Below, piece after piece: positions 2,533-32,573 of a stretch of 39,318 nucleotides of DNA. The notes beneath the pieces are model-generated. The model was not told where the DNA came from. It was given only the letters and a program-made list of their open reading frames with translations, and ran no database searches. The DNA lies in the IMG/VR virus record IMGVR_UViG_3300042691_035686, positions 1 through 39,318 of that record. One strand, 5' to 3'. Origin of the DNA: a virus. A program made the translations under genes and the position numbers. Position 1 is the stretch's first letter; each line of letters begins with the position of its first letter.

Positions 2533-5500
2533 ATGGCAGTATCAGTAGATAATATACTAAGTGACGAAAACTTTGGTGGAGGAGGAAGTGCTGAAACAAC
2601 TAGTGGAGGCGGTTCTTCTTCTAATACAAATACGAATACAAACGGAACCATAAAACTTTATTTATCTTCCAATGAGAATACAGAATTTTTTGATGGTACT
2701 ACCAGTTTGGGATCTGGCCTTACTGTTACTTCACAATTTTCACCATCTTTAACATTTGGAAGTAGTAGAACGTATACTGCAAAAATTGATGGAAGAATTG
2801 CAAAAAATTATTTTAAAGTAAATGTTGATTCTTTTCAAAATGGATATAATCCCGTAACAGGTCAACCAACCTATCAGGAAAGAGTTATAATAAAAGAATA
2901 TGTATTGAGAGATGGAAGTGATACCGAATACGAAGAAAAAGATAGTAAACAAATAGCATCAACTACAATAAGTGAAGCTCTTTATTTTTCATTCAAACCA
3001 ATTACGGATGTTGGCTCTAACAATAATGTTAAAACAACATCAACGGTAAATTATGAAGTTGGATTTGGTTCAAATTTTAAAAATGAATTAGGTGAAATAT
3101 TAACTTTAGAGTATAAAATTGTAAAGGGGTCAGATATAATAGATTCCGATTCATTAAAGTTAGTTTCAGGAGATACAGATGGTAAAAATATTAGCTCTTC
3201 TAATATAGAAAATGCAGAAGTATACTTTAAAATAACAGGAGTACTTCCTTCCGGATTTTCTTATAAAACGATATACTACACTTCTGTAAATAATGCAAAT
3301 CTACACCCAACTGATTTTTCAAAATGGGAAATTGGAAATGCTGATTTTAAAGTTTCTGCAAAGGAATTAGAAAAAGGTGGAGTAGCGGTTTATGTAATTT
3401 TAGAAAGAAAAGAATTAGTAGCTAAACCGATTGTTGAATTAATAACTACTAATTACACCAAACAAGTAAAAGATTCGGATTCAGATACCTACGTTAACGT
3501 GGATTTTGTTGCAAAAGATGCGGATTTTGTTGATGTATATGTTTCTAAAGATGATGTAAGAAGAATAAATGCAGGTGAAGGATTTATTAAGTTATCTTTT
3601 AAAAATGATTTTAAAGGAATATTTGGCCAAAAGAAAATATATTTAGTTGCAATAGGTGACTTATATGGAACAGGTGAAAAAACAGAAGCAATAATAAGTT
3701 TTACCTCTGTAAATGATTTCCCTTCAATTACTGAAATAGTTTTTCCGGACACAATAGATGTACCATCTTTTTCGGATTTACAAATTGACTATACTATTTC
3801 ATATAAAACATTTTCTGCTTCAAGCGTTAACGTTGATTTGCTATTAAAAGATAAATCAAAAGTATCTTTATTTAAGAACTTAACGCCAAATAATGAATTT
3901 AAAATTAATTTAAGAAAATTAGCAGAAACATATCCAAATTGGAATGGTAGTGATAATGTTACATTAATTTTAAAACCATTCAATAAATCCGGTGATGTTG
4001 AATTAGAAGGAAATGAATACGAAATAATAACAAATATCGTATATCCTGCAATTCAATTAGATGAAGATATAATAAAAAAATCAATATACGATGCTTTCAT
4101 TGAAAAATTAAAGTTTACCGAGCCTGAAAAAGAAAGTAAATATCTTACACATTTGGCAAACTTTGGAAATTCAGAGCAAGTATTGATTTCATCTTGGGAA
4201 AGTGATGATTGGACGTTATCAACTAAAAAAATAGATTCTTTAGGAAATGAAGTTGTTGATAAAGAAGTTAATTCTACAATATTAAAATTATATTCACCAC
4301 TACCATCTAATATAAATACAAATTCAACTTTTTGGATTACAAAATTATTAACAAATCCATTAATTGAAACGGTTGTATTAAATGAACAAGATGATACTAA
4401 ATGTCCTCCTATAAAGGGCCCAAATTTTAGTGTAGAGGTGGATTTTGTTACTGGAAAATCTACTGGATATGAATCTTTAGATGATTTGATATTGAGTAGT
4501 TCTGTAAGTTCATCATCAAATTTAGTTTCAACATATTTAAGTTCATCATTTATTGATACCGACTCGTTAAACATTGAATATGCCAGTGGTTCGGAATATC
4601 TTTGGAATAATTTTGTACACTTTAGTTCTGCTAAGGAAAGAGTAGATAATTTTGTATATAAAGTTCAATTAATAGAAGCGTATGAAACTTTAATTGTTAG
4701 TGCTTCCAATGGCGCAGGTTCAATTGCGGAATTAAATGAAAAAGAAAGACAAACATTAAAGAAAAATCAATTAATACAAGGATTTGATGGATTTGAAAAA
4801 TTTTTATATACATCATCTTCCTTTACATTATCTACGGCTTCTTCTTTAACTTGGCCATATAACGGAAATGCAAGAATAAGTGCGGAAAATACTATCGTTA
4901 AAAATTGGTATGCAAATTTAATTGAACTTGCAGAAACATATGATGTTCAAAATCCAAACTGGGTTCAAAATAATATACCACAATATATTGTAACCAATGC
5001 AGAAAACGATAGTTTATTATTGTTCTTTTCAATGATTGGCCAACACTTTGATAACATTTATTATCATACCAAAGCTATTGAAAAAAGTAGAGGATTAGGA
5101 TATAAGTCTAAAGGTGGAATATCTGATAAAATTTTATTTGATACTCTTAAATCTCTTGGTTGGGATGCTAAAAATTTGGCAGCAGATGCAAAACTTTGGG
5201 AATACGCATTTGGATTAGATTCAAACGGAAGTACAAAATACGAAACTCCTGCAAAGAAAAGAACATATGAAGTTTGGAGAAGAATTGTAAACAACTTACC
5301 TTATTTATTAAAACACAAAGGTACACGAAGAGGTATTTACGCTATTATGTCTTGCTATGGTATCCCATCATCAAATCTTTCAATTTTAGAATTTGGTGGG
5401 CCAGAAGTAACGGATGAAACTAAAGGAAAATACGAATTTGACAATATAACAACTGGTTTAAAATTCACATCAGGGGCATATGTTCAATTTGATTGGAAAA

Positions 5501-10729: not shown

Positions 10730-11146
10730 ATGGCTAAGAAAAAAGTTACAAAAAAGAACAATCCTAAATGGGTTGCAAAAAAGTATGGATTTAAGTCAGG
10801 TCTTGAAGAAAATATTTCCAATCAAATCGCAGGTAGGGGAATTGAAGTTCAATATGAGTCGGAAAAAGTGGCTTATACTATACCTGCTTCTGAACACACT
10901 TATAATCCTGATTTTAAGTTACCAAATGGCATTAGGGTAGAAACAAAGGGTAGGTTTGTTCTTGCGGATAGGAAAAAACACCTATTAGTAAAGGAGCAAA
11001 ATCCTAATTTAGATATACGATTCGTATTTTCTAATTCTAAGAATAAAATCAATAAAAAATCCAAAACAACTTACGCTGATTGGTGTGATAAACACGGATT
11101 TAAGTATGCGGATAAGGAAATACCAGATTCTTGGTTTTCTGAGTAA
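10730..11146 (+). CDS. T7 endonuclease I-type Holliday junction resolvase
   Basis: The 138-residue product aligns along its length with phage T7 gp3, a homodimeric nuclease that cleaves four-way junctions. Recognisable segments are FKSGLEENIS, YTIPASEHTYNPDFKLPNG, VETKGRF, DRKKHLLVKEQNP, LDIRFVFSNS and CDKHGFKYADKEIP. The T7 catalytic residues Glu20, Asp55, Glu65 and Lys67 correspond to Glu26, Asp61, Glu71 and Lys73 with a constant offset of six. Length is close to the T7 enzyme (149 residues). The likely role is debranching replicated DNA before packaging, the task T4 gives to the unrelated endonuclease VII (gp49). It sits 5 bases after a small gene and before the primase and recombination genes. 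The family assignment is firm; the physiological role is inferred from the family. Confidence 0.95.
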   Translation: MAKKKVTKKNNPKWVAKKYGFKSGLEENISNQIAGRGIEVQYESEKVAYTIPASEHTYNPDFKLPNGIRVETKGRFVLADRKKHLLVKEQNPNLDIRFVFSNSKNKINKKSKTTYADWCDKHGFKYADKEIPDSWFSE

Positions 11147-11157
11147 AATACTTATGT

Positions 11158-11182
11158 AAATATTTGGTAATATCAAATATTT
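11158..11182. repeat. Inverted repeat ahead of the primase
   Basis: A 9-bp inverted repeat (AAATATTTG at 11158-11166, CAAATATTT at 11174-11182) with a 7-base spacer lies between the resolvase stop and the likely primase start. A degenerate form of the ATATTTATA element (ATACTTATG, 11148-11156) lies just upstream. It could be an operator or a weak mRNA hairpin. Confidence 0.4.
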
Positions 11183-11198
11183 GTTGTATATTACAGTT

Positions 11199-12140
11199 GT
11201 GTTGAAGCAAACTGATAAAAATATCGTAATATCCACGTTGTCTAATACGTTGGGTAGTTATTCCGTATTAAAGGGTAACGAATTGGCATTTTATTGTCCT
11301 TTTTGTAATCACCACAAACAAAAATTACAGGTAAACACCGAAACTCAAAAATGGCATTGTTGGACGTGTAATAGTGGTGGTAAGAAATTAACTTCTCTAT
11401 TAAAGAAATTAGATGTAGACCGTAAAACTATTTCTCTAATTAGAGAGATATACGGTGATTCTAATTATAATCCCCAAAATGAAGATGAAGGAACAAAGGT
11501 GTTCATTTCCCTTCCAAAAGAATTTAAACCCCTTAATGAAGTTCCTAAAGGGTTTGATCCTGAATATAAACACGCTATACACTATCTTACTGAAAGAGGG
11601 ATAACTGAAAAGGATATTATAAAATACAATATTGGATATTGTACAGAAGGATTATACGCTCGTAGAGTAATAATACCTTCATATAATTCAGATGGTTCAT
11701 TAAATTATTTTGTTTCTCGTTCTTATTATAGAGATGAGAAGATGAAATACAAAAACCCACCAATCAGTAAAAATGTAATTTGTTTTGAATCGCAAGTTAA
11801 TTGGAAAGAACCGATTATACTTTGCGAGGGTGTGTTTGATGCTATAACAATTAAAAGAAATGCTATCCCACTTTTAGGTAAGTTTCCATCTAAACAATTA
11901 GTTGAGAAAATCTTTATGAGTGGTGTAAACGACATCATTATTTCATTAGATAACGATGCAATGACCGAAGCATTAAAAGCAGCAGAATATTTTCGTAAGA
12001 ATGGAATAAATGTAAAAATGATGTATCTAAAAGATAAAGATGCAGCAGATATGGGTTATGAAAACTTTTATGAAGAACTAAAGAAAACTAAAGAATTCAA
12101 TAGTGAGGAATTACTATTGATGAAAATAAATCAATTATGA
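11199..12140 (+). CDS. DnaG-type DNA primase (T4 gp61-like)
   Basis: The product synthesises RNA primers for lagging-strand DNA synthesis. Near the N-terminus is a CHC2-type zinc-binding module (FYCPFCNHH, then WHCWTC). A Toprim catalytic core follows with the acidic motifs ILCEGVFDA and ISLDNDAM, then KDKDAADMGYENF, which recalls the gp61 C-terminal region. Length (about 313 residues) is near that of T4 gp61. The start is uncertain: there is no ATG, and an in-frame TTG at 11181, GTG at 11199 and TTG at 11202 are possible. I chose GTG because it leaves the upstream inverted repeat outside most of the coding region and still keeps the whole zinc module. The stop overlaps the next start by 4 bases (ATGA), implying translational coupling with the Mre11-Rad50 fusion. 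No helicase partner is in this window. Confidence 0.9.
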   Translation: MLKQTDKNIVISTLSNTLGSYSVLKGNELAFYCPFCNHHKQKLQVNTETQKWHCWTCNSGGKKLTSLLKKLDVDRKTISLIREIYGDSNYNPQNEDEGTKVFISLPKEFKPLNEVPKGFDPEYKHAIHYLTERGITEKDIIKYNIGYCTEGLYARRVIIPSYNSDGSLNYFVSRSYYRDEKMKYKNPPISKNVICFESQVNWKEPIILCEGVFDAITIKRNAIPLLGKFPSKQLVEKIFMSGVNDIIISLDNDAMTEALKAAEYFRKNGINVKMMYLKDKDAADMGYENFYEELKKTKEFNSEELLLMKINQL

Positions 12141-15100
12141 AATTAAAAAGAATTTATCACATCGCAGACGTTCATATTCGTAATGTTAAAAGACATAAAG
12201 AATATAGAGAAGTATTTACAAAGATGTTTGAAGAAATCCGTAAAAGAGGAACGGATGATGCAATTATTTATTTAGCAGGTGATATTGCCCACGCTAAATT
12301 AGAAATGTCTCCAGAATTAGTCAACGAAATTAGTTGGTTATTTAAAGAGTGTGCAAAAACTTGTCCTACAATTCTTATTACCGGAAATCACGATTGTAAT
12401 ATGAACAATATGGATAGAATGGACGTTCTTACTCCGATTGTAGACGCATTGGAATTAGAAAACTTTTATTATTTAAGAGATACACAGGTTTATTCAATTG
12501 GGGGAGTTGATTTTTCAGTATTCAGTATTTTAGATAACAAAGACAATTGGATTACTGCTGATAAATTATTTGGTAACAAAAAGATTGCGTTGTTTCACGG
12601 ACCTGTTGATAACTCAATGACCGATATAGGATATGTGGTAAGTAGTAGACATTTTACAACAGATATATTTGATGGATTTGATTTGGCTCTATTAGGTGAT
12701 ATTCATAAAAGACAAGAGATGATTTCACCAAAAGGTTGTAAGGTAGTTTACGCCGGTTCATTAGTTCAGCAAAACTTTGGTGAAACTCTTGATAAACATG
12801 GATTTTTGGCGTGGGATTTAGATACAATGACTTATGAAGAAATTGATATTCAAAATGATTATGGATATTATACATTGGATATTGATAACGGAAATGTTCC
12901 AATTGTAAATGATATGCCAAAATATCCTCGATTAAGAGTAAGATTATCAAATACCGATACCGCCGATACTAAAAAGGTAATGACTGAAATTAAAATGAGG
13001 TATGGCGTTGATGACTTTACAATTATTAGAACGGATTCTCTTTCCAAATTAAAGACAGGAAATAGATTAAACAGATTAGATTTTGAAGATGTTGCGGATA
13101 TTAATTATCAAAATTCATTAATAAATGAATATGTGGAAAGAATGATGCCATTTACAACTCCAGAAGATTTAGCAGGTTTAGAAAAAATAAATAGAGATAT
13201 TAATAGTAGAATTACTCATGAAGAAATATTAAGAAATATACAATGGAAACCAATTCGTTTTGAGTTTTCAAATATGTTTAGTTATGGAGAAAACAATAAA
13301 ATAGATTTCAATAAGTTAAATGGTTTAATGGGATTATTTGCACCAAATGCACAAGGTAAGTCATCTATATTTGATGCAATATCATTTTGTTTATATGATA
13401 AGAGTAGTAGAGCATTTAAAGCGGCAAATATCTTAAACAATCGTAAAACCGATTTTACCTGTCATTTACATTTCCAAATTGAAGGAATTGATTATCATAT
13501 TCTAAGAACTGCAAAAACAATTAATAAAGGTAAAAATGTAAAAGTTGATGTTGATTTTTATAGAATGGATGGGGATGAAAAAACCTCACTAAATGGAACG
13601 GAGCGTAGAGATACAAATGCAGTAATTGAACAATATGTTGGTAAGTATGAAGATTTTGTATTAACAGCATTATCTTTACAGGGTAACAACTCTATATTCA
13701 TTGATAAATCGCAATCAGAAAGAAAAGACTTACTTGCTCAGTTTATGGGATTGAACGTTTTTGATAAGTTATATGATACTGCTTTAGAAGATATTAGAGA
13801 AGTAAGTGTTCTTATTAAAAATTTTAAGAAAACAGATTTTACTTCGGAATTAGCAGAGAAAGGAATTGAAATAAAAGATAAAAAAAGTGAATTAAAAGAA
13901 TTGCAATCCGATTTAGATAATGAAGTAAAAATTAAAGATGGAATTGATAGTGAAATATTAGAATTGACAAGAGAACTTGCACCAATTGATTCTAAATTAG
14001 ATTTAAAAGTCTTGGAAGAAAAGAGAGAAGATGTTAAAAAGCAAATTAGTAATTTAGATAGTGATTATGAAATAAAAGAGGGTAAGATTGAAGAATATAA
14101 AACTCTTCTTACGGAAGTTTCGCAATCAATATCCGAAAAATCTAAATTTACAATAGATGGTACTGAGATTGATATAGAAATTGCTCACAATGATTTTGTA
14201 AAACAATCAAAAGATTTAGTAGAAGCAGAGAAGGTTTATCAAAAAGCAAAACAACAATTAGAAGTTGCAGAAGAAAAGATTAAACATTTGGATAATCATC
14301 AATACGACCCGAATTGTAAGTTTTGTTGTGATAATGAGTTTGTAAAGGATGCAATGAAAGCAAAATCCGACTTAGAAGAATTGCAAACAAACTCTGACCA
14401 CCTTTTAGATGATGTAAATTCTATATTAACAACTTTACAAATATTACAAGGTGTAGAAACCCAATATAATGAATGGAATGAATTAAAAGCAAAATATTCT
14501 AAAGGAAAGGTTATATTAGAAAAAACAGAAGCGGAATTAAATGGATTAGATACTAAGGGAGAGTTATTACAAACTCAATTAGATAATATTGAAGATGATA
14601 TTGAAAAATATTATGAAAACGAAGATACAATTGAGGCCAATAAGGAATTAGAAAAACAAATTAAACAGAAAGAAACCTTAAAGTTAGAAGTTGAAAAAAG
14701 AATTAAACAAATTAATAGGGATATAACTTCCGTAAATGGTTCTATTTCTTCATTATCTTCGTTTATAGAGGGTATAAAACAAAAGATGAATGAAGTTAAG
14801 GAATTAGAAGAAAAGAACCGCCTGTACACTTATTATTTAGATGCGGTGAAGCGTGATGGTATTCCATACGAATTGATTTCAAAAGCGTTACCTGTTATTG
14901 AAAACGAAGTAAATAACATTCTTGCACAGGTTGTAGATTTTGGTGTTACAATGGAAATGGATGGTAAATCAATCAACGCAAAGATTGTTTACGAAGACCA
15001 GGAGTGGCCACTTGAAATGTGTAGTGGTATGGAAAAATTTGTTAGTGGACTTGCAATCAGAGTTGCACTTATCAATGTATGTAATTTACCTCGTCCAAAT

Positions 15101-15292
15101 TTCTTAGTAGTAGATGAAGGATTTGGTACATTAGATGCCGACAATTTATCATCTCTATTTATGATGATGCAATATCTTAAAACTCAATTTGATTTTATAT
15201 GGGTAATATCTCACTTAGAACAAATGAGAGATATCGTAGACGGATTGATTGAAATTAAAAAAGAAAATGGATTTAGTAAGATTGATTTCTAA
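12137..15292 (+). CDS. Single-chain Mre11-Rad50 (gp47-gp46) recombination nuclease/ATPase fusion
   Basis: This 1051-residue protein joins two partners that T4 encodes separately. Residues 1 to about 350 are an Mre11/SbcD-type phosphoesterase with D11-x-H13, GD49, GNHD (83-86) and LLGDIHKR near 185. From about 370 a Rad50/SbcC-type ATPase begins (FEFSNMFSYGENNKIDF). It has Walker A APNAQGKSS (402-410), long coiled coils, a zinc-hook CKFC (727-730), a signature region MCSGMEKF (961-968), Walker B FLVVDEGFGTLD (from 989) and a final ISHLEQ. In T4 the gp46/gp47 complex resects DNA ends for recombination-dependent replication, and the same role is inferred here. The reading frame is open throughout, with no stop or restart at the junction. 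The 4-base overlap with primase implies coexpression. Its 3' end overlaps a convergent regulator gene by 20 bases. Confidence 0.93.
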   Translation: MKLKRIYHIADVHIRNVKRHKEYREVFTKMFEEIRKRGTDDAIIYLAGDIAHAKLEMSPELVNEISWLFKECAKTCPTILITGNHDCNMNNMDRMDVLTPIVDALELENFYYLRDTQVYSIGGVDFSVFSILDNKDNWITADKLFGNKKIALFHGPVDNSMTDIGYVVSSRHFTTDIFDGFDLALLGDIHKRQEMISPKGCKVVYAGSLVQQNFGETLDKHGFLAWDLDTMTYEEIDIQNDYGYYTLDIDNGNVPIVNDMPKYPRLRVRLSNTDTADTKKVMTEIKMRYGVDDFTIIRTDSLSKLKTGNRLNRLDFEDVADINYQNSLINEYVERMMPFTTPEDLAGLEKINRDINSRITHEEILRNIQWKPIRFEFSNMFSYGENNKIDFNKLNGLMGLFAPNAQGKSSIFDAISFCLYDKSSRAFKAANILNNRKTDFTCHLHFQIEGIDYHILRTAKTINKGKNVKVDVDFYRMDGDEKTSLNGTERRDTNAVIEQYVGKYEDFVLTALSLQGNNSIFIDKSQSERKDLLAQFMGLNVFDKLYDTALEDIREVSVLIKNFKKTDFTSELAEKGIEIKDKKSELKELQSDLDNEVKIKDGIDSEILELTRELAPIDSKLDLKVLEEKREDVKKQISNLDSDYEIKEGKIEEYKTLLTEVSQSISEKSKFTIDGTEIDIEIAHNDFVKQSKDLVEAEKVYQKAKQQLEVAEEKIKHLDNHQYDPNCKFCCDNEFVKDAMKAKSDLEELQTNSDHLLDDVNSILTTLQILQGVETQYNEWNELKAKYSKGKVILEKTEAELNGLDTKGELLQTQLDNIEDDIEKYYENEDTIEANKELEKQIKQKETLKLEVEKRIKQINRDITSVNGSISSLSSFIEGIKQKMNEVKELEEKNRLYTYYLDAVKRDGIPYELISKALPVIENEVNNILAQVVDFGVTMEMDGKSINAKIVYEDQEWPLEMCSGMEKFVSGLAIRVALINVCNLPRPNFLVVDEGFGTLDADNLSSLFMMMQYLKTQFDFIWVISHLEQMRDIVDGLIEIKKENGFSKIDF

Positions 15293-15558: not shown

Positions 15559-18500
15559 ATGGCCATCCTTAAAAAAACTTTATTTCCTGAAAATTTAGAA
15601 AGGTACAATATATTTTTAGAAGATACTGATCCTAATAGTAGGTACTTTGGAATTACAGAACTTCCTGGAACTTTTTCTGGTGGTAAAAATTCATTTTTAA
15701 TTCAGGGTTCGGAAGAGCTTGTTGCAGATACTCTTATAAAAATAGAAATAAAAGATGCACAAGGAAATGTAATTTATCATGAACCAGGTGAAGGTATTCC
15801 GGAATACTATGAGGGAACTTCTAAAGTTGTTGCAGTTTACATATATCCTGATACAGCTTTTGGTCCTTGTACAATTACAATATTAGGAGAATTAAAAGAA
15901 TATGAAGATGCAAATGGTCTATTAACACCAATTCCATCCAATTGGGAAAACCAATATAACGTTAGATGGCAAAAAGTAGTAAATGTAAATCCTCTTATTG
16001 CCAATACAACAAAGATACGTTTTTATCGTAGACCAGCGGTAGATATAACAGAAACAATTTTACCAATTTATAATAGAAATGTAAATAGAGTAACTATAAG
16101 TGGTAGTGTTGATGGCGTATCAGTACAGCCGGTATCTGGTTCAAACTTTAGAACATTTAAAGGAGACACGATATACGAATTAAGAATTAGTGGTAGTAAT
16201 TTTTCTTCATCAATGGAAGGAGAAACAATTACAGTTACTGGATTAAATCAATCATATTCCACAATAATAAAAGATGTTGTTAATTCAAAAAAAGCATTAG
16301 CAACTTCACCATATTATGAAACATCTTCAAATGCTACAAACGCAGTACAATATGTAACAGATTTTGTTTCAGCATCGTTTAGTTTACCATATAATGAAAG
16401 TGTAACGTTAACAAACTCTGCTATAAGTTCTTCATATGCTAAAATAAAAATAACAAATTTAGAAACATTTAGTGGTGATGTAAATCGTTTGAAAATATTT
16501 GGAAAAAGAAAATCTGATATTGGTAATTATACTTTATTAGAAGATGTTCAATTAGAATCAAACGAATTATTTCAAACCGATGCATATAGTGGAAGTGTGA
16601 ATGTTAGAATCGGTCAATTTTCATCTCAAAAAATAATAGATGATTTTTGGAAATATAAAAAACATGAGGAAAATACATACTACACTCCATCGCAAAATAA
16701 TTCAGTTTTAGCATCATCTGTAAGATTGCAAGATGAAAATATATTAAACACAACTCAACAGCCTCAAAGAGTTTTTTATAACTACGAAGATATTGACTTT
16801 TTAAGTAATTCAGAATATCAATTAGATTTTAATTTATTATTACAATCTTCTTCATTTGGATACGGAAAACTAAATGTATTTGCGGTTGGACCGGCATTTG
16901 CAGAAACCGATAGTAATCTTGGTTTTGGAAAACTTTTAGGAGAGTTTAATGTAAGTGAATCTTTTAGAAGATTTGATAAACAACAAATTAATTTTAAACC
17001 AGATAGTGATGGGCAAGGACAGATATTTTTTAATATACATCAAGGAGATTGGTATTTATCAAATATAAGTTTAAGAGCTTCTCAGGAAACTAATTTTTCT
17101 CCAAATGAAGTTACTCTTAATGTAAACGTACCTACAAAAGTAAATAACGATACATATGATTTTCGTTTTGAATTTTATGATATAAATAATAACTATGTAC
17201 CAGTTACATTAGAAAAAGAAATAACATTTACCGGTGGAACCGATAGTGTGGTTAGAAAAGCACTTACAGTTACTCCGGATAATACACTTTTTAGTTTTTC
17301 AGGTTCAGGAGAAACAATAGGAGTATCTTCAATAAATTTTGATATTTCAAAAATAGGTTTAACTGGATCAGTTACCTTTTACTCATCGGCATTTGATGCA
17401 AACGGAGATTACATAAACCCATCGGTATATGCTGCAGAATCTTTTTATCCTGGATTATTGACAAATGTTACAGAAACATCGGCAACTCTTTTAGTTTCTA
17501 ATTTTACAGGTTCAATTACTTCATCAAAAATAAGTAGGGTACAATATACAGCATCCTGTGAGGATCAAAGAGATTTGGTAAATATTTATAGAGTTGACCA
17601 AGGGGCCGTGGGTGCAGATGGAATTGATGGTCAAAACTTTATAGCAGTAGCTAATAAAAATCAATTTGTTTACGATCCAGATGATAGAAATGTTCCTGCA
17701 CAACTTAACGATGTAATTGATATAAAATTAACAAATAATATAATTTCTGGAAGTATTTCAATAGCATCCGGTTCATACTTGCCAAGATTAGCTTTATTAT
17801 CTACAACATATGTCGGACAAACAACTGAATCGGTTTATCGTGTTTTTAGTGGTGATGACCAAAATGATGTTGCAATGCTTGGTACAAATGTTGCATCTTG
17901 GTCATATGATACTCCAAATCAATTCGTACATAAAGGAACTTATGTTTTTACAAAAGGTGGATATTCTTCTTCGGTTCAATTGGAAGGTGTTTTAAAGGGA
18001 GATAAAAGTAAAAATTTAAATGCAGTATCAAACGCAAATCAGTTTTTCTATAAAATGACCGATTTAAGTTTATCTCCTTCTGGACAAGCAATTACAATAG
18101 ATGTAAAAAGAAATAATTTAGGAAGTACTACAAATGTTATAACGGTAACAAGCGGTAGTGGTAAACCAGCATTGACGGTTGGTTCTAACAATGGGACAAC
18201 CGGTGTACAATCATATAGTATAAATGGTAGTGATTACCCATATTCGGCAAGTGCAACTACTTATACATTTACTGCTTCCGATTTAAACGCTGCAGTATAT
18301 AATGATTCTATAACCATTACACCTGTCATAGCAGAATCACAAATAGCGGTAAATGTATCAAATGAAAATACAACATTCCCTGCTTATTCGGGTGGAACTG
18401 TTTTTGGTGGATTTTTAGCAAGTAGTGGTTCTATTTCGGTTAAGGTTGGTAGTGAAGATATTTCATATGCATCTACAATTGGAAATAATAAATTTAGTGC

Positions 18501-21500
18501 AAGTATATCATCATCTTCAAATGTAACAGCTGTACTTACAAACAACAATTATTCAATAACTGGCTTATCGGATAATAGTGGAAGCATTAATTTAAAGGTA
18601 ACGTATAGAGATGGTAGAGGTAGTGATAGTGTATTTACTAAATTGGTAACTTATTCAAAAGCAAAAGCGGGTACACCAAATGTATTAGTTGCTGTATCAC
18701 CTGCTGCTCAAACAATAAATGCAAATTCAAAAACAAGCGGATCCGCAACTCCAATTGCATTGACAGTAACAGCATTGGAAGCGGGTACTAGTAGATTTAC
18801 TTCAATAGGAACTCCAATTTACACAAATGGATTAGCAGGTTCTGTTTCAACTAATACTATAACACTTAGTTCAACCGCATCGGATATAACGGGTTCAAAT
18901 GCACAAGTAACAATACCAGTAAATTATACAGATAGTGAAGGAACATCTGGAACAAAAACGGTAATAGCAACCGTTTCAAAAGCATTGGCCGCTCCTCCTG
19001 CAGTAGTTGTATCAATTGAAAAAGATGGTCAGACAGTAACAAAGAATACATCAAATGTTTATGGGACACCATCTACTTTTAAATTATCTGTAAATGAAGG
19101 TGGGAGTGCATACATATATGATAGTGTATCGCCATACAATGTTCCTTCTTTTAGAATAAGTTCAGTAACAAATGGAACTACTGCTTTATCAGAAGGAGAA
19201 ACTTTCGTAACCATAACACCGAGTACACCATCATCTACAAGTGGATTGATAGTCAGTATAACAGGTTCTTATACGGATTCGGAAGGAACTCAAACAACTT
19301 TTTTTAAAACACATAATGTAAATGTTGCATCGGATGGTACAAATGGTGCAACGGGAGCAACGGGTCCTGGAATTGTACTTAGAGGTGAATATGCAGCAGG
19401 AACTACTTATTATTACACAACTGTGGCTGGTTCATCAAGAAGAGATGCAGTTTATCAAAGTTCAGGTGGTATTACAAAATATTATGCAACATTACAAGAA
19501 ACAACTGGAAACGCGCCAACTGATGGTGCCAGTAATACATATTGGGAATATTTAGGAACTCAAGATTTTTTTGTTGCAGCCAAGATTGCAATTTTTGATG
19601 AATCGTATGTAAAAAATACACTAAATGTAGGAACAAATTCTGCAGGAAGTGCTGCTAATATAACTTTGGCAGGTGGTACAAATAAACCATTTGTTTCAAT
19701 TGGACAACCAACTCAAACATATGGAAGTAACGGTATTTGGCTAGGAATTAGTGGAAGTGGATTTGTTCCAAAAGTAAGTTTTGCAAGTGGTAGTAATTAT
19801 TTTAAATATGATCCATCTGCTGTTAATTCTGTTGAGGTTCAGGGGACGATTGCCGCAACCACATTGACAGCTCAGACGGGTTCAATTGGTGGTTTTGAAA
19901 TTTCAAATGCAAGATTAATTGGTGGTACTACCGGAAGTGGTGTAATATTAGATGGTGGTCAGGCAAGAATAATAGCCGGTAATTTATCAACAGCTGCTCA
20001 GGCAGTATTATCAACAGCTGGATTTCACGCTGGAAATACATCATTTAATTCTGCTCCATTTAGAGTAGATACTGCTGGTAACTTGACAGCCACTAGTGCA
20101 ACTATTTCTGGTTCAATAAATACAACTCAAGGAACTATCGGTGGATGGGTAATAGGTCAAAATAGTATTTCTAAAGATAAAGTAACATTGTATGCGGGAG
20201 GTACTGGTGCGGATAATTATATACAAATAACCGGTGAAAGTACTTTTGCTGGTAATCGTGTACTTATACATCCTGGAGCATTATTATCTTCTGTACCAGG
20301 TGCGGGAAGTGAAATAACCGCAACTACTGCTCAGAGTTATTTTAATATAGGAACATCAACACCACAAAACTTATATCTAACCGGATCTAGTACAAATGTT
20401 GCAGTACTTTCTACTACTTCTGCAAATATGTCACCAAGCCTTTCCACATCTTCAACATATTCTATAAATGCATCAGTTAAATATAGAATTGATTTGACAT
20501 GGAATAATGCTCCTACGCTGGAAACAACATATCTTGCAACCGCGGGGACATTTTCTGGTCCAGATCAAGCTGCTCAATATATGGCATATTATGTAAAATT
20601 TAATTTATCTCAAAACCCAACTACTTATTTAAATAATTATTCTAATATTAGTTTAGGATGGATTGGAGCTGGGTCTGGTAATCCTGTTACTGATTTTATT
20701 GCGTATTTTAATGCCATAAAAGGAACATCATATGGAAGCCTTCAAGACTTGAGTGGACAATATATTGATTTATATACATCGTTTGATTCGGTTACAGGTA
20801 CAGCATCAATTGTAAGTACACTATCATACGGAGGAACAACAATAGGATCAGTTACAAGGACAGTATCACCATCTACGACCAGTACTCAAGAAGAATTTGC
20901 AGATACTACATTTCAATTTATAACATTGGGAAAAACTACGAATCCATTAGTCATTAATACAACAAAAACAAATGGACTTACCGCAAATTATAGGAAAACA
21001 AGATGGCATGTTGATTACTATGATTCTTTTTATTTAAATGGGGCGGATTATATACCTGGTAATTATGTTATATGGGCAGAAAGTATTGGAGTTGATGGAT
21101 TCTCACCATCATCAACTACTTATTATGCAAAAGGATTATCACTAACTGCAAATAGTTTAACAAAACAAGTAGAAATATCGGAAAGAGGGTTTCAAGCTTT
21201 ATTTAATAATGCTCAAGATGCTACTGGTAACTTTTTTAAAGTTGAAGATATTAGCTCACCAACCGCTGCGAATGCAAATATTAAGTCATCTGGATATTTT
21301 TCACACTATGGTGAATTGCATGTAAAGGGAGATATTGCGGGATTTTCAACATCATTGGGTTCTGATCTACGATTAAAAAAGAATATAGAAAAAATTGATG
21401 AATCTGAGATAGAAGATATGGATAAATTAGAACCAGTAACATATAATTGGAATACTGATAATGATAATAAAAAACATTATGGATTTATAGCCCAGGATGT

Positions 21501-21654
21501 TGAAAAAATATACCCACACTTAACTGAAGGAAGAATTATGGGAGAGTATTTAACTATAAATTACAATGAATTAATTCCTGTAATGGTTAAACAAATTCAA
21601 AATTTAAAGAAAGAAGTAAATACTTTAAAAAAGGTTTTATCTAATGGCAAGTAA
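15559..21654 (+). CDS. Giant tail fibre with C-terminal peptidase S74 chaperone domain
   Basis: The 2031-residue product has an N-terminal part (about 1-180, with GGKNSFLIQGSEEL and YNVRWQKVVNVNPLI) of the kind that anchors fibres to the baseplate. A long series of beta-sandwich or Ig-like repeats follows, then short collagen-like runs (GADGIDGQN near 690, GTNGATGATGPG near 1260), a Tyr-rich carbohydrate-binding-like stretch, and stalk segments with TLTAQTGSIGGFEI-type repeats. The end (about 1933-2031) is an intramolecular chaperone of the endosialidase/peptidase S74 type: SDLRLKKNIEKI, then LEPVTYNW, HYGFIAQDVEKIYP and a final coiled coil. The autocleavage pair would be Ser1935 and Lys1940 by analogy with the S-x4-K arrangement of the family. 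It trimerises the fibre and is then released. The next fibre gene overlaps its 3' end by 11 bases. Confidence 0.9.
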   Translation: MAILKKTLFPENLERYNIFLEDTDPNSRYFGITELPGTFSGGKNSFLIQGSEELVADTLIKIEIKDAQGNVIYHEPGEGIPEYYEGTSKVVAVYIYPDTAFGPCTITILGELKEYEDANGLLTPIPSNWENQYNVRWQKVVNVNPLIANTTKIRFYRRPAVDITETILPIYNRNVNRVTISGSVDGVSVQPVSGSNFRTFKGDTIYELRISGSNFSSSMEGETITVTGLNQSYSTIIKDVVNSKKALATSPYYETSSNATNAVQYVTDFVSASFSLPYNESVTLTNSAISSSYAKIKITNLETFSGDVNRLKIFGKRKSDIGNYTLLEDVQLESNELFQTDAYSGSVNVRIGQFSSQKIIDDFWKYKKHEENTYYTPSQNNSVLASSVRLQDENILNTTQQPQRVFYNYEDIDFLSNSEYQLDFNLLLQSSSFGYGKLNVFAVGPAFAETDSNLGFGKLLGEFNVSESFRRFDKQQINFKPDSDGQGQIFFNIHQGDWYLSNISLRASQETNFSPNEVTLNVNVPTKVNNDTYDFRFEFYDINNNYVPVTLEKEITFTGGTDSVVRKALTVTPDNTLFSFSGSGETIGVSSINFDISKIGLTGSVTFYSSAFDANGDYINPSVYAAESFYPGLLTNVTETSATLLVSNFTGSITSSKISRVQYTASCEDQRDLVNIYRVDQGAVGADGIDGQNFIAVANKNQFVYDPDDRNVPAQLNDVIDIKLTNNIISGSISIASGSYLPRLALLSTTYVGQTTESVYRVFSGDDQNDVAMLGTNVASWSYDTPNQFVHKGTYVFTKGGYSSSVQLEGVLKGDKSKNLNAVSNANQFFYKMTDLSLSPSGQAITIDVKRNNLGSTTNVITVTSGSGKPALTVGSNNGTTGVQSYSINGSDYPYSASATTYTFTASDLNAAVYNDSITITPVIAESQIAVNVSNENTTFPAYSGGTVFGGFLASSGSISVKVGSEDISYASTIGNNKFSASISSSSNVTAVLTNNNYSITGLSDNSGSINLKVTYRDGRGSDSVFTKLVTYSKAKAGTPNVLVAVSPAAQTINANSKTSGSATPIALTVTALEAGTSRFTSIGTPIYTNGLAGSVSTNTITLSSTASDITGSNAQVTIPVNYTDSEGTSGTKTVIATVSKALAAPPAVVVSIEKDGQTVTKNTSNVYGTPSTFKLSVNEGGSAYIYDSVSPYNVPSFRISSVTNGTTALSEGETFVTITPSTPSSTSGLIVSITGSYTDSEGTQTTFFKTHNVNVASDGTNGATGATGPGIVLRGEYAAGTTYYYTTVAGSSRRDAVYQSSGGITKYYATLQETTGNAPTDGASNTYWEYLGTQDFFVAAKIAIFDESYVKNTLNVGTNSAGSAANITLAGGTNKPFVSIGQPTQTYGSNGIWLGISGSGFVPKVSFASGSNYFKYDPSAVNSVEVQGTIAATTLTAQTGSIGGFEISNARLIGGTTGSGVILDGGQARIIAGNLSTAAQAVLSTAGFHAGNTSFNSAPFRVDTAGNLTATSATISGSINTTQGTIGGWVIGQNSISKDKVTLYAGGTGADNYIQITGESTFAGNRVLIHPGALLSSVPGAGSEITATTAQSYFNIGTSTPQNLYLTGSSTNVAVLSTTSANMSPSLSTSSTYSINASVKYRIDLTWNNAPTLETTYLATAGTFSGPDQAAQYMAYYVKFNLSQNPTTYLNNYSNISLGWIGAGSGNPVTDFIAYFNAIKGTSYGSLQDLSGQYIDLYTSFDSVTGTASIVSTLSYGGTTIGSVTRTVSPSTTSTQEEFADTTFQFITLGKTTNPLVINTTKTNGLTANYRKTRWHVDYYDSFYLNGADYIPGNYVIWAESIGVDGFSPSSTTYYAKGLSLTANSLTKQVEISERGFQALFNNAQDATGNFFKVEDISSPTAANANIKSSGYFSHYGELHVKGDIAGFSTSLGSDLRLKKNIEKIDESEIEDMDKLEPVTYNWNTDNDNKKHYGFIAQDVEKIYPHLTEGRIMGEYLTINYNELIPVMVKQIQNLKKEVNTLKKVLSNGK

Positions 21655-28298: not shown

Positions 28299-31200
28299 AT
28301 GAATTTAATAAAAGAAGTGAATAAACCAGAAGTTAAAAAAACAGTAGTAATATATGCTGGTCGTTTTCAACCATTCCACAGAGGACATCATGATGCTTAT
28401 CAAAGATTAGTTTCTAAGTTTGGTGAATCAAATGTCTATATAGCTACATCTAACGATACATCTTCAGAAAAATCTCCATTTACTTTTAAAGAAAAAAAAC
28501 AGATAGCTACTCAAATGTTTGGAGTTCCTTCTTCAAGATTTGTTAGAGTTTCAAATCCATATAGACCCGTAGAAATATTAGGAAAATTTGATGGAAAAAC
28601 TACTGCATATATTGCAGCGGTAGGAGAAAAAGATGCTGATAGATTAAACGGAAAATATTTTAAACCATATAAGAATAAATCGGGTTATGGTTATGATGAA
28701 ATTGGTTATACATATCCTATTCCACCGGAGGCAAATCCAATTAGTGGTACTCAGGTTAGAAAAGGATTAGGAAGCGGTGATAAAGATAAAGCAAAATCAT
28801 TCTTTCTTAAAGCATACCCAAAATTTGATAAAGAGATATTCAAAATGATAACAGGTAAATTAAATGAAAATTTTATAAAAGGTTATCCATCAAAAGAAGA
28901 TGTTAAAAAAATACAAAAGAAAAACGATGATATTCGTTCAGTAGCTACTACGGATGATTCGTATGTATATGACCCAATTGGAGAAATAATAAATAGAATT
29001 GTAGATGAAGAAGCTTTTCAACATTTTTTAAAAGAATATTTGAATGAAGATGATGATGCAGCAACAATGGGATTAACTCATTTAGGAGGTGGTTATTATG
29101 GTAAAGATAAAAAAGGACCTGCAACACATAAAAGAGAAGATGGTAATATAAGACCATTAACACCTGCAGAAATAGATGCAGAAAAAAAGAAACAAATGGC
29201 AAAGGGCCCGTCCGATGCACCTGCAAATGAACCCAAACCATCACAACCTGGCCAACCGGTTAATAAAGGGGTAACTGCGCAGGGTAAAATAGATAAAAAG
29301 AAAGAAGAACCAACTAATAAAAAGGCCGGAGAAGAAATTCCTAAACCAGAAACACCACCAGAACAAAAATTAAGTAGTGGAGAATTAAAATCAGGTGCAG
29401 AAAAAAGAGCAAGTGGTGAAGAAAAAGAATTATCGGGTGAGGAATTAGAAACTAAAGAAAAATTAGATAAAGTATTATCTACTATGGATGAACAATCCAA
29501 AAAAGAAGTAGAAGATACGAATAATCCTGATTCCGAAGTAAGAAAAGGAATGTTTAATAAAGTAAAAGACTGGTGGGATAAAACTAAAAAAACTACGGTA
29601 GTTGGTAGATTTATAGAGAAAAAAAGACAGCAATATAAAAATACAGGTACCGCGATTAACAACTTAATGCATGGTAGACGTGTTGGTTCAATTGTAGATC
29701 CTGAAAGTGGAAATCATTTTCATTATAAACAAGTTCAAGAAAGAGATGAGAATGGTAAATATCTTTACGATGAAGAACCTATATACAAAAAGGATAAAAA
29801 AGGAAATGTTGTTAAAGATAAAGAGGGTAATCCAATTCAAGATAAAAATTGGTTAGGAAAACCAAAAACTAAGAAAATTCCTAGACTAATGGATGGAATA
29901 GATGAACATACCAAACATCTTGCACATGAATCCCAACACGCTGAACATGAACAAAAACACGCATTAGTTCACACAGGAATTGAAGTTGGATTCTTAATAG
30001 CAGGAGTTAGTATGGCGGGTGGTATAGCAGCTGGTGCTGGAACGGTTGGTAAAACGATAGCTAAAGATTTAGGAAAACATGCAACATTAGAAATTTTAGG
30101 AGTTGAAAACCCAATAGTTGCGGGTAGTGGTGGGCTTGCAGCTGCACACTTTACACATCATTTATTGGAAGGTTTGTATTTAAAAGAAAACTCTAACGAA
30201 ATAGATGAAACTAAATTGTTTTCAAATATTGTAGAAGCTACAATGGAAAAAATGAAAACATATAAGTTATCTGATAAACAATTATTGAAAACATTAGAAA
30301 AATATCAAAAAGAAAAACCTAAAAAAGATTTAGAAAATTTATTAAAAGAAAACCTTTCAGAAACAAAACAACAATCAATTCAACATTTCGTAGAGTTTGC
30401 AACTAAAAGATTAAAGTTAAAAGAAACTCCAAAAATTAATTTAGTTGGTGGTAGAGAATTTGCAGAAGTAAAAAGTAGTTTAGGTGGGTTTAATCCTGAT
30501 ACAAAAGAAATATACGTTGCAACCGAAGGCCGATTAACCGCAGATATATTAAGAACCCTTGCACATGAAATGGTTCATAGAAAGCAAGATGAGTTGGGAT
30601 TGGTTAGAAATCCAATGAAAGATGGTGCGGATGGTTCTCCAATAGAAAACCAAGCACATGCAGTTGCTGGAATATTAATGAGAGAATATGGTAGAGTTAA
30701 TAAGCAAATTTATAACGAAGATGTTAATGTAGATGTTGATAAAGGTGATACTATCTTAATGGGCAAATTCAAAAATAAGAAAGTACAGGTTAAAGATATT
30801 GGAAAAGACCAACATGGGATGCCAACTATTAATGGAAAGCAGGCAACTACATTTCGTAAAATAGATGAAATGGGATCTAAAGATGTTCATTTTTCTAATA
30901 TCATTAGATTATATAAAGATTCTAAATTCAAAAAAAGAATAAATGCATATTTGTTTGGTAACCCAAATGTAAATAAACCAAATGATGTTGCAAGAGCTTT
31001 AAGAAATATGGGATATGATGAAATAACTCAAATGGAAAAGGAGTTAAATATAAAACCAAATTTTGATGAGCAACTTGCAGAATTATATAAAGATATTGAA
31101 AAGTACTTATTAGAAGTAAGTGCATTATCAGGAGATGATGCACAACCGGATGGTAGTTATTTACCAAAAGGAGCTACAAGAAAACTTGACGGAAACGATG

Positions 31201-32573
31201 GTGCTAATAAAGGAGATGATTGGTTTTATAGTGGAGGATATACTCAAATGGATTTCCCAGTAGCAGATGGTATTTTTGGAGATGAAGATGAAAGTAGATT
31301 GACTGTAAGATATTCTGCAAGAAATCTACCTAGATTTGATGAAGCTCCAACTAAGTTCTTAAAAGAAGGTTTACTTTTAGAAGGTGGTGCATATGGACAT
31401 ATGAGCCATCCATTTGATGATATGGATTTAACTTTTGGTGACCTTAAAAATATTATCACAAAGGCACTTAATGGTGATTTGGGTGTAGTTAGAGAAAAAA
31501 CTGATGGACAAGCATTAGCAATTAGCTGGAAGAATGGTAGATTAATCGCGGCACGTAATAAAGGCCATTTACAAAACTCAGGAGCAAGTGCAATGGGTAT
31601 TGAAGATGTTGCATCAAAATTTGGTGGTAGAGGTGGACTAACTGATGCATACAATTTTGCAATGAAAGACTTATCTGCAGCTATTGCATCTTTATCTCAA
31701 AAACAGAGAGAAAAGATATTCGGAGAAGGAAGTAAATTTATGAACATTGAAGTAATTTGGCCTACATCTGTTAATGTTATTCCATACGGCCAGGCTTTAT
31801 TAGTTTTTCATAATTGTATTGAATATGATGTAAAAGGAGTTGCAATTGGTAAAGTGGATGGTGCAGAAAGTGTTTTAGCTGGAATGATTAAGCAAGTAAA
31901 CGCCGATGTTCAATCTAAGTATACTATACAAGGTCCACCAATTACAGAAATACCAAAATCAGATAACCTAAGTTCAAAGCAAGGAAAATATCTTTCAAAA
32001 CTATCAAAGCTACAATCTGAATTTAAATTAAATGATTCCGATAATGTTGCGGATTATCATCAAGCTTGGTGGGAAGATTTTATAAATAAAAAATCACCTG
32101 TAAAAGTTGATAAACTTACAAAAGAAGCATTGGTAAGAAGGTGGGCGTTTGGAGATAAGAGCTTTCGTTTAAATACAATATCAAACCCCAAGCTGCAAGA
32201 ATGGGCAATGGAGAATGATAAAGTAAATGTAGCAAAGCAACAAAAAGATAATATAAAACCATTTGAAGAAATATTCTTAGGAGTTGGTGCAGATGTTTTA
32301 GAATTTGTTGGAAGTGTACTGACGGTACATCCAGATAAGGCAATACGTTCAATGAAATCAAGATTAAAATCAGTAGCAGACCAGGTTAAAACTTCTGGAA
32401 ACCCTGCCCAAATTCAAAAATTAAAACAAGAATTAAGTAGATTGAATAAACTAGGTGGTATAGATAGAATCGTTGCAAACGAAGGAATAGTATTTTTTTA
32501 TAATGGAAAAACATACAAACTTACGGGTACATTTGCACCACTAAATCAGATACTTGGTATTTTTTATGAATAA
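28299..32573 (+). CDS. Multienzyme protein: nucleotidyltransferase, zincin and ligase-like domains (possible head polyprotein)
   Basis: The 1424-residue product has three enzyme-like parts. Residues 14-187 form a NMN adenylyltransferase/cytidylyltransferase fold: GRFQPFHRGHH (HxGH at 27-30) and ISGTQVR (148-154). After a Pro/Glu/Lys-rich linker and one hydrophobic stretch (about 564-585), residues 640-800 look like a zinc metallopeptidase: HEMVH (756-760) and a possible third ligand Glu783 in SPIENQAHA. From 1029 a domain I know from marine phages begins GGAYGHMSHPFDD. It carries a ligase-like motif I, KTDG (1067-1070), ARNKGH, a possible motif III NIEVI (Glu1151), EGIVF (1395-1399) and a weak motif V. 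L-x-E sites fall at boundaries: Glu190, Glu250, Glu624, Glu939 and Glu1028. T4 prohead protease cleaves after (L/I)xE, so a packaged polyprotein is inferred. The unusually long spacing between ligase motifs III and IV keeps that call tentative. Confidence 0.8.
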   Translation: MNLIKEVNKPEVKKTVVIYAGRFQPFHRGHHDAYQRLVSKFGESNVYIATSNDTSSEKSPFTFKEKKQIATQMFGVPSSRFVRVSNPYRPVEILGKFDGKTTAYIAAVGEKDADRLNGKYFKPYKNKSGYGYDEIGYTYPIPPEANPISGTQVRKGLGSGDKDKAKSFFLKAYPKFDKEIFKMITGKLNENFIKGYPSKEDVKKIQKKNDDIRSVATTDDSYVYDPIGEIINRIVDEEAFQHFLKEYLNEDDDAATMGLTHLGGGYYGKDKKGPATHKREDGNIRPLTPAEIDAEKKKQMAKGPSDAPANEPKPSQPGQPVNKGVTAQGKIDKKKEEPTNKKAGEEIPKPETPPEQKLSSGELKSGAEKRASGEEKELSGEELETKEKLDKVLSTMDEQSKKEVEDTNNPDSEVRKGMFNKVKDWWDKTKKTTVVGRFIEKKRQQYKNTGTAINNLMHGRRVGSIVDPESGNHFHYKQVQERDENGKYLYDEEPIYKKDKKGNVVKDKEGNPIQDKNWLGKPKTKKIPRLMDGIDEHTKHLAHESQHAEHEQKHALVHTGIEVGFLIAGVSMAGGIAAGAGTVGKTIAKDLGKHATLEILGVENPIVAGSGGLAAAHFTHHLLEGLYLKENSNEIDETKLFSNIVEATMEKMKTYKLSDKQLLKTLEKYQKEKPKKDLENLLKENLSETKQQSIQHFVEFATKRLKLKETPKINLVGGREFAEVKSSLGGFNPDTKEIYVATEGRLTADILRTLAHEMVHRKQDELGLVRNPMKDGADGSPIENQAHAVAGILMREYGRVNKQIYNEDVNVDVDKGDTILMGKFKNKKVQVKDIGKDQHGMPTINGKQATTFRKIDEMGSKDVHFSNIIRLYKDSKFKKRINAYLFGNPNVNKPNDVARALRNMGYDEITQMEKELNIKPNFDEQLAELYKDIEKYLLEVSALSGDDAQPDGSYLPKGATRKLDGNDGANKGDDWFYSGGYTQMDFPVADGIFGDEDESRLTVRYSARNLPRFDEAPTKFLKEGLLLEGGAYGHMSHPFDDMDLTFGDLKNIITKALNGDLGVVREKTDGQALAISWKNGRLIAARNKGHLQNSGASAMGIEDVASKFGGRGGLTDAYNFAMKDLSAAIASLSQKQREKIFGEGSKFMNIEVIWPTSVNVIPYGQALLVFHNCIEYDVKGVAIGKVDGAESVLAGMIKQVNADVQSKYTIQGPPITEIPKSDNLSSKQGKYLSKLSKLQSEFKLNDSDNVADYHQAWWEDFINKKSPVKVDKLTKEALVRRWAFGDKSFRLNTISNPKLQEWAMENDKVNVAKQQKDNIKPFEEIFLGVGADVLEFVGSVLTVHPDKAIRSMKSRLKSVADQVKTSGNPAQIQKLKQELSRLNKLGGIDRIVANEGIVFFYNGKTYKLTGTFAPLNQILGIFYE

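What the first reader, a model, noticed from the sequence alone, without database searches (positions are those of the whole stretch)
12137..15292. Mre11 and Rad50 fused into one phage polypeptide
Seen in sequence: one uninterrupted frame holds all Mre11/SbcD motifs (DxH, GD, GNHD, GDIH) followed by all Rad50/SbcC motifs (Walker A, CxxC zinc hook, signature, Walker B). Established knowledge: T4 gp47 and gp46, SbcD and SbcC, and Mre11 and Rad50 are separate chains that assemble as a 2:2 complex. A fixed 1:1 fusion constrains how the nuclease moves relative to the ATPase heads, and may show which C-terminal Mre11 contacts are dispensable. I am not aware of this as a described arrangement, but I cannot search.
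Basis: partly seen in the sequence, partly recalled or inferred. Interest (0 to 1): 0.75.

Follow-up and report, generated by a model that had tools for sequence, protein, structure and literature searches.

The report
Known-type Mre11–Rad50 fusion in phage
One phage gene makes a single protein that joins the two halves of the DNA-break-processing enzyme Mre11–Rad50; this joined form was described in 2011 and is common in aquatic viruses, but some gut phages seem to have cut it apart again at a different place.

Summary
In detail: window 12137-15292 (+) is one 1051-aa frame with a complete Mre11 (nuclease, cap, Rad50-binding helix-loop-helix, HLH) followed by a complete Rad50. It is no artefact: 169 of 170 distinct IMG/VR contigs examined hold both domains in one frame, and the joint is under in-frame selection. 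The arrangement is not new. Yoshida, Claverie and Ogata (2011, PMC3175470) described it for Mimivirus, plasmids, eukaryotes, a Bacillus phage and aquatic phage scaffolds with the same kinds of neighbour genes. New to my searches is a related clade of large gut phages in which the nuclease core is a separate chain of about 277 aa, while the rest of the cap and the HLH stay on a Rad50 of about 800 aa (9 of 10 records). This suggests a fusion that was cut again at another joint. Verdict: new member of a known kind.

The parts
12137..15292 (+). whole fusion ORF, 1051 aa, 121 kDa, Mre11 then Rad50
12149..12847 (+). Mre11 metallophosphoesterase domain (residues 5-237), motifs DVH, GDIAH, GNHD, FHG, GDIH
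   Evidence: Pfam Metallophos 5-191 E 8e-12; structure match to SbcD 7dog_A Z 24.9, model 3-298
12860..13030 (+). Mre11 cap domain (residues 242-298)
   Evidence: model elements E242-250 E263-271 H275-289 E295-298; inside the 7dog_A match
13031..13099 (+). flexible hinge between cap and HLH (residues 299-321)
   Evidence: pLDDT under 50 at 300-315
13100..13207 (+). helix-loop-helix, Rad50-binding (residues 322-357)
   Evidence: helices 322-336 and 342-357; role inferred from known Mre11
13208..13240 (+). fusion joint, about 11 residues (358-368)
   Evidence: pN/pS 0.23 over residues 321-371
13241..13753 (+). Rad50 N-lobe with Walker A APNAQGKS (residues 369-539)
   Evidence: AAA_23; 7yzo_D Z 30.4, model 370-1051
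13754..14848 (+). Rad50 coiled coil (residues 540-904)
   Evidence: helices in the model
14315..14326 (+). zinc hook CKFC (residues 727-730)
   Evidence: both Cys kept in 52 of 53 rows of A3, one gap
14849..15289 (+). Rad50 C-lobe with SGME signature, Walker B, D-loop, H-loop (residues 905-1051)
11181..12140 (+). DNA primase, next upstream, ATGA overlap
   Evidence: phrog_47 E 2e-54; upstream in 163 of 173 relatives
10730..11146 (+). endonuclease (phrog_945; T7 endonuclease I-like by recall)
   Evidence: E 2e-53; upstream in 128 of 173 relatives

Best explanation
This is a virus-type Mre11/Rad50 fusion of the kind first described for Mimivirus R555, in a T4-like tailed phage. Shown: one frame; full domain set; conserved architecture; the only AAA_23 (Rad50-type) match in 13 large relatives; primase, endonuclease, terminase and T4-like portal genes on the same contig. 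Inferred: two chains dimerise through the Mre11 nuclease domains and through ATP-bound Rad50 heads, giving the ordinary 2+2 machine with the HLH tied in cis to its own Rad50. It would process DNA ends and hairpins, resect ends for recombination-dependent replication as T4 gp46/gp47 are thought to, and hold ends through the zinc hook. The fusion probably arose by loss of the stop between adjacent D and C genes, and mainly secures co-expression and joint inheritance rather than a new mechanism.
For: Domains and fold. Best viral structure matches are giant-virus proteins, first a Tupanvirus protein of 1379 aa (25% identity, 1316 columns), then Tenacibaculum phages pT24 and PTm1 (PTm1 single CDS). 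Published R555 features match: H in GDxxH, D for His206, primase and gp3-type endonuclease neighbours (against 6, 127). One AAA_23 match in each of 13 of 13 records of 125-274 kb. T4-like portal E 4e-74, terminase. E. coli sbcD/sbcC lie end to end with a 4-base overlap, from which a fusion is one step. T4 gp46/gp47 thought to resect ends: PMC3016280, passages. The SbcC subunit is essential in giant phage SPN3US: PMC5105663, passages.
Against: No expression, biochemistry or oligomer evidence. The metal-ligand change GHxH to GDIH could alter nuclease activity. pTM of the model is 0.47, so the placement of the two halves is not established. Mimivirus R555 itself was not in the sequence collections, so no tree with it was made. 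The samples favour fused forms: queries were fused and only the best 80 hits were kept.
Confidence: 0.8

Rival explanations
1. The frame is open throughout but two proteins result, through internal initiation or cleavage at the joint.
For: In-frame Met380 just after the joint is Met in 46 of 53 aligned rows. None of 19 gene starts checked in the window has a Shine-Dalgarno match longer than 4 bases, so internal starts cannot be judged by that sign.
Against: A start at 380 would cut off the first Rad50 strand (369-378). Met336/337 are Met in only 30 and 28 of 53 rows. No stop is seen in the joint of any fused relative.
Confidence: 0.08
2. Assembly or sequencing error joins two genes.
For: None found.
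Against: 169 of 170 distinct IMG/VR contigs and the isolate Mel-JY01 show the same frame; the GNHD-to-Walker A distance is 319 aa in nearly all close relatives.
Confidence: 0.01
3. The protein has lost or changed its nuclease function (GDIH for GHIH) and works mainly as a DNA-tethering SMC-like ATPase.
For: Asp at the first motif-V ligand in 53 of 53 fused rows; His in 6 of 6 separate pairs and 9 of 9 gut-clade chains read.
Against: All other motifs are kept; nuclease domain pN/pS 0.14; Asp can bind metal (inference).
Confidence: 0.1

Closest known systems
Mimivirus R555 and the Mre11/Rad50 fusion proteins of Yoshida, Claverie and Ogata 2011 (PMC3175470)
   Same: N-terminal Mre11, C-terminal Rad50, cap and HLH kept, short joint, GDxxH, Asp for His206; phage scaffolds with primase and gp3-like endonuclease
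   Different: Shorter (1051 against 1351 aa), so a shorter coiled coil (inference); in a phage, not a giant virus of eukaryotes
Microcystis phage Mel-JY01 WWT39521.1 (annotated AAA domain containing protein)
   Same: 42% identity over the full length, primase upstream
   Different: Annotation does not mention Mre11 or fusion; a 58-codon-scale small ORF lies between primase and fusion
T4 gp47/gp46 and E. coli SbcD/SbcC
   Same: Same domains and order of genes
   Different: Two chains; canonical GHxH in motif V; T4 has 46.1 and 46.2 between the genes
Short-joint phage fusions (Rhizobium phage RHph_Y65, E. coli phage IME392, Vibrio Va2, Thermus phiLo, Cobetia Carin-5, Acinetobacter Ab1-TPeters)
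   Same: One CDS, Mre11 then Rad50
   Different: Separate clade in both trees (100/99 and 100/100); GNHD to Walker A only 243 aa in IME392; one common fusion origin is not rejected (p-AU 0.18 Rad50, 0.35 nuclease)

Membership tests
R555-type Mre11/Rad50 fusion | Mre11 and Rad50 domains in one frame, in that order | tested here: met
R555-type Mre11/Rad50 fusion | cap and HLH retained with a short joint | tested here: met
   cap 242-298, HLH 322-357, joint 358-368; compare 9-12 residues in PMC3175470
R555-type Mre11/Rad50 fusion | GDxxH and Asp for His206 | tested here: met
   GDIAH, GDIH; R555 as stated
R555-type Mre11/Rad50 fusion | sequence clade with R555 | tested here: inconclusive
   R555 sequence not held; giant-virus proteins are the five best structure matches, no tree made
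Mre11-Rad50 / SbcCD | metallophosphoesterase motifs I-V | tested here: met
   motif V is GDIH, a variant of GHxH
Mre11-Rad50 / SbcCD | ABC head: Walker A, signature, Walker B, D- and H-loop | tested here: met
   Walker A lacks the first Gly, signature is SGME
Mre11-Rad50 / SbcCD | coiled coil with CxxC hook | tested here: met
Mre11-Rad50 / SbcCD | ATP-dependent nuclease, 2:2 assembly | not testable with these tools
   no biochemistry
T4 gp46/gp47 | two separate chains | tested here: not met
   one frame; T4 genes separate

The most novel reading that the evidence does not exclude
The viral fusion is an ancestral state that some phages have re-cut elsewhere. In a clade of large gut phages the Mre11 nuclease core (about 277 aa) is a free chain encoded elsewhere, while the second half of the cap and the HLH remain covalently on Rad50 (about 800 aa). 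Two other relatives (L084, L108) are cut inside the nuclease just after motif V, one with an endonuclease ORF inserted. If so, the unit that must stay whole is HLH plus Rad50, and the nuclease is the part that can be detached.
Probability: 0.7. Interest if true: 0.5.

Novelty: new member of a known kind. Interest (0 to 1): 0.35.

Why it matters
A single-chain Mre11-Rad50 that is the only Rad50-type ATPase found in large phages is a convenient experimental form of a machine usually made as a complex. The natural variants (fused; re-cut at the cap; cut inside the nuclease) would let one ask directly which joint between nuclease and ATPase matters. The fusion itself is already in print, so the surprise for a specialist is small; the re-cut forms are the part worth following.

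Tried and rejected
Assembly artefact: rejected by relatives. Internal start by Shine-Dalgarno: uninformative, since the window's gene starts lack such sites. Group I intron in L084: Rfam gathering search of the locus and E-value search of the insert region gave none, nor in L108. Two independent origins for long- and short-joint fusions: suggested by both trees but not established, as the AU test does not reject one clade (p 0.18 Rad50, 0.35 nuclease). Gut clade nested in the fused clade: nested in the Rad50 trees (95/86 and 98/91, starred, with a long-branch warning), sister in the nuclease tree, and a fused clade without it is not rejected (p 0.099). Plasmids: 32 records, none covering 80% of the query. 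Bacterial genomes: 2 loci, L119 (a 3.9-kb contig with primase and fusion, perhaps phage) and L120 (gut clade). PMC12363816 (Jug phages; one passage seen) mentions split terL and nrdD and holds none of the words Mre11, Rad50, SbcC. PMC7824862 (jumbo phages; passages) calls SbcC and SbcD nearly universal and in the passages shown says nothing of a fusion. Literature on re-split Mre11/Rad50: the searches showed none in their listings. PMC3175470 was read in parts 1-3 of 5 and by passages.
Full report
OBSERVATION. The window holds one open frame, 12137-15292 (+), 1051 aa, starting in an ATGA overlap with a primase gene. Pfam finds Metallophos at residues 5-191 (E 8e-12) and AAA_23 at 378-639 (E 1e-8); PHROGs finds SbcD over 3-334 and SbcC over 332-1050. 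Two are variants: Walker A APNAQGKS and signature SGME.

ANATOMY. An AlphaFold2 model from 51 aligned rows (mean pLDDT 82.9, pTM 0.47) shows a metallophosphoesterase domain (5-237), a cap (242-298), a loop with pLDDT under 50 (300-315), two helices forming an HLH (322-336, 342-357), and Rad50 from about 369, with a coiled coil 540-904 that carries the CKFC hook. The Rad50 part aligns with E. coli SbcC 7yzo_D (Z 30.4, 349 residues, rmsd 3.4), the Mre11 part with S. aureus SbcD nuclease and cap 7dog_A (Z 24.9, 275 residues, rmsd 3.3). The relative placement of the two halves is not established (pTM 0.47).

REALITY AND SPREAD. Of 342 relatives found in IMG/VR the best 80 were kept; 80 of 80 hold both domains in one frame. 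A broader profile scan found 575 or more and kept 80; the 77 new loci are all fused, but 17 repeat earlier contigs. With the scans seeded by Mel-JY01 and by a 735-kb phage, 170 distinct contigs were examined (counted by eye): 169 fused, one (L108) split. Many are near copies, some are cut by contig ends, and fused queries favour fused hits. Against 15 close relatives pN/pS is 0.23 over residues 321-371, 0.14 for the nuclease, 0.18 cap, 0.14 Rad50 N-lobe, 0.51 coils and 0.08 C-lobe, so the joint is translated and kept. In 13 of 13 records of 125-274 kb there is one AAA_23 match, in the fusion; other metallophosphoesterase frames of 219-278 aa occur in six of them, so a second, separate nuclease is not excluded there.

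CONTEXT. The primase lies next upstream in 163 of 173 relatives with at least 1.7 kb of upstream sequence, the endonuclease upstream in 128 of 173; the ten without the primase are L085 and its kin. Further along the window are a terminase and a T4-like portal. The record is a 39-kb virus record. None of 19 gene starts checked has a Shine-Dalgarno match longer than 4 bases, 4 of 19 have one of 4 bases; this fits a Bacteroidota-like host by recall but proves none.

WHAT IS KNOWN. Yoshida, Claverie and Ogata (2011, PMC3175470; parts 1-3 of 5 read; passages) described this fusion for Mimivirus R555 and twelve further proteins, including one of Bacillus phage 0305phi8-36, and found R555-like genes abundant in aquatic metagenomes, most likely in viruses and some probably in phages, on scaffolds with primases and gp3-type endonucleases. 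They say that the fusion in the metagenomes was confirmed for only a few long sequences. They noted Asp for His206 and expected a joint of 9-12 residues. The window protein fits each point. Structure search of viral models places giant-virus proteins first. R555 itself was not available for a tree.

[quoted passage not shown] furiosus, links it to the nuclease part (PMC8824468, passages). The fusion joins HLH to Rad50 and leaves the corresponding loop free. So the claim that the fusion restrains the nuclease has no support, and no Mre11 domain is missing.

RE-CUT RELATIVES. L120 (a contig of a Bacteroidales MAG) and nine IMG/VR loci (L198-L206; two pairs nearly identical) hold a frame of 276-316 residues with the nuclease and only the start of the cap. 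In 9 of these 10 records a separate frame, 791-808 aa (571 aa in one cut by its contig end), matches the cap/HLH-Rad50 profile from its first residues; the tenth is a 33-kb record without a match. 'Gut' is my label, from the Bacteroidales MAG and by recall of the sample kind; no call gives the habitat. The N-terminal 125 residues match the fusion's cap-end and HLH by profile comparison (probability 95.4, E 1.9e-8, 81 columns), while two control regions of the fusion give 0.9 and 0.6. A model shows strand-helix-strand, then helices 74-87 and 95-106, then the first Rad50 strand, in the order of the fusion (fused rows were in its alignment). Separate phage Rad50 proteins (Staphylococcus VL14, Moorella, T4) have no such extension. 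Since the HLH belongs to Mre11 elsewhere, the simplest history is fusion, then a new cut inside the cap. A three-chain intermediate is possible but needs more steps. Rad50 trees put the clade inside the fused group (95/86, 98/91), the nuclease tree beside it, and the test does not separate these (p 0.099). L084 and L108 are cut after motif V and lie within the fused group in both trees; L084 has an inserted ORF with a TnsA-like endonuclease domain and no recognised intron.

MOTIF V. Position 188 is Asp in 53 of 53 fused rows of A3 and in 5 of 6 short-joint fusions (Carin-5 has GHIH); it is His in 6 of 6 separate pairs and 9 of 9 gut-clade nucleases read. These rows are related, so this is a correlation by descent, not a test.

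VERDICT. Observation confirmed; arrangement known since 2011; new member of a known kind. The re-cut clade is a new variant as far as the searches show.

Noticed in passing
L120 4998-5831 and L198-L206; Rad50 at L206 191-2611 (-), L205 67-2487 (-), L223-L226: Clade of large phages with a free nuclease core and a Rad50 that carries the cap-end and HLH; the two genes lie on opposite strands or kilobases apart.
   Followed up: yes
L084 2953-7175 (LR756508, 484 kb): Fusion gene interrupted just after GDIHK by an ORF (3674-4588) with a TnsA-like endonuclease domain; no intron family found.
   Followed up: partly
L108 2983-3654 and 3644-6223: Cut at the same place without an endonuclease ORF; two overlapping frames with an added stretch of about 40 residues. 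A sequencing frameshift is not excluded.
   Followed up: partly
L212 1405-3888 and 3885-4442 (Yersinia phage YerA41): Short-joint fusion annotated as two overlapping CDS, the second holding only the Rad50 C-lobe (827 + 185 aa).
   Followed up: no
L017 5947-9135: GNHD reads GNQD, a change of the catalytic histidine, in an otherwise intact fusion.
   Followed up: no
L219 3462-6491 (Listeria phage LMTA-57): One 1009-aa CDS 'recombination exonuclease' in a herellevirus, while two other herelleviruses seen (L208, L210) carry two genes; separate fusion or sequence error.
   Followed up: no
window 28299-32573: 1424-aa ORF near tail-like and packaging genes with an N-terminal cytidylyltransferase domain.
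   Followed up: no
window 15559-21654: 2031-aa ORF ending in a Peptidase_S74 chaperone domain, tail-fibre-like by recall.
   Followed up: no
window, 19 gene starts: No Shine-Dalgarno match longer than 4 bases.
   Followed up: no
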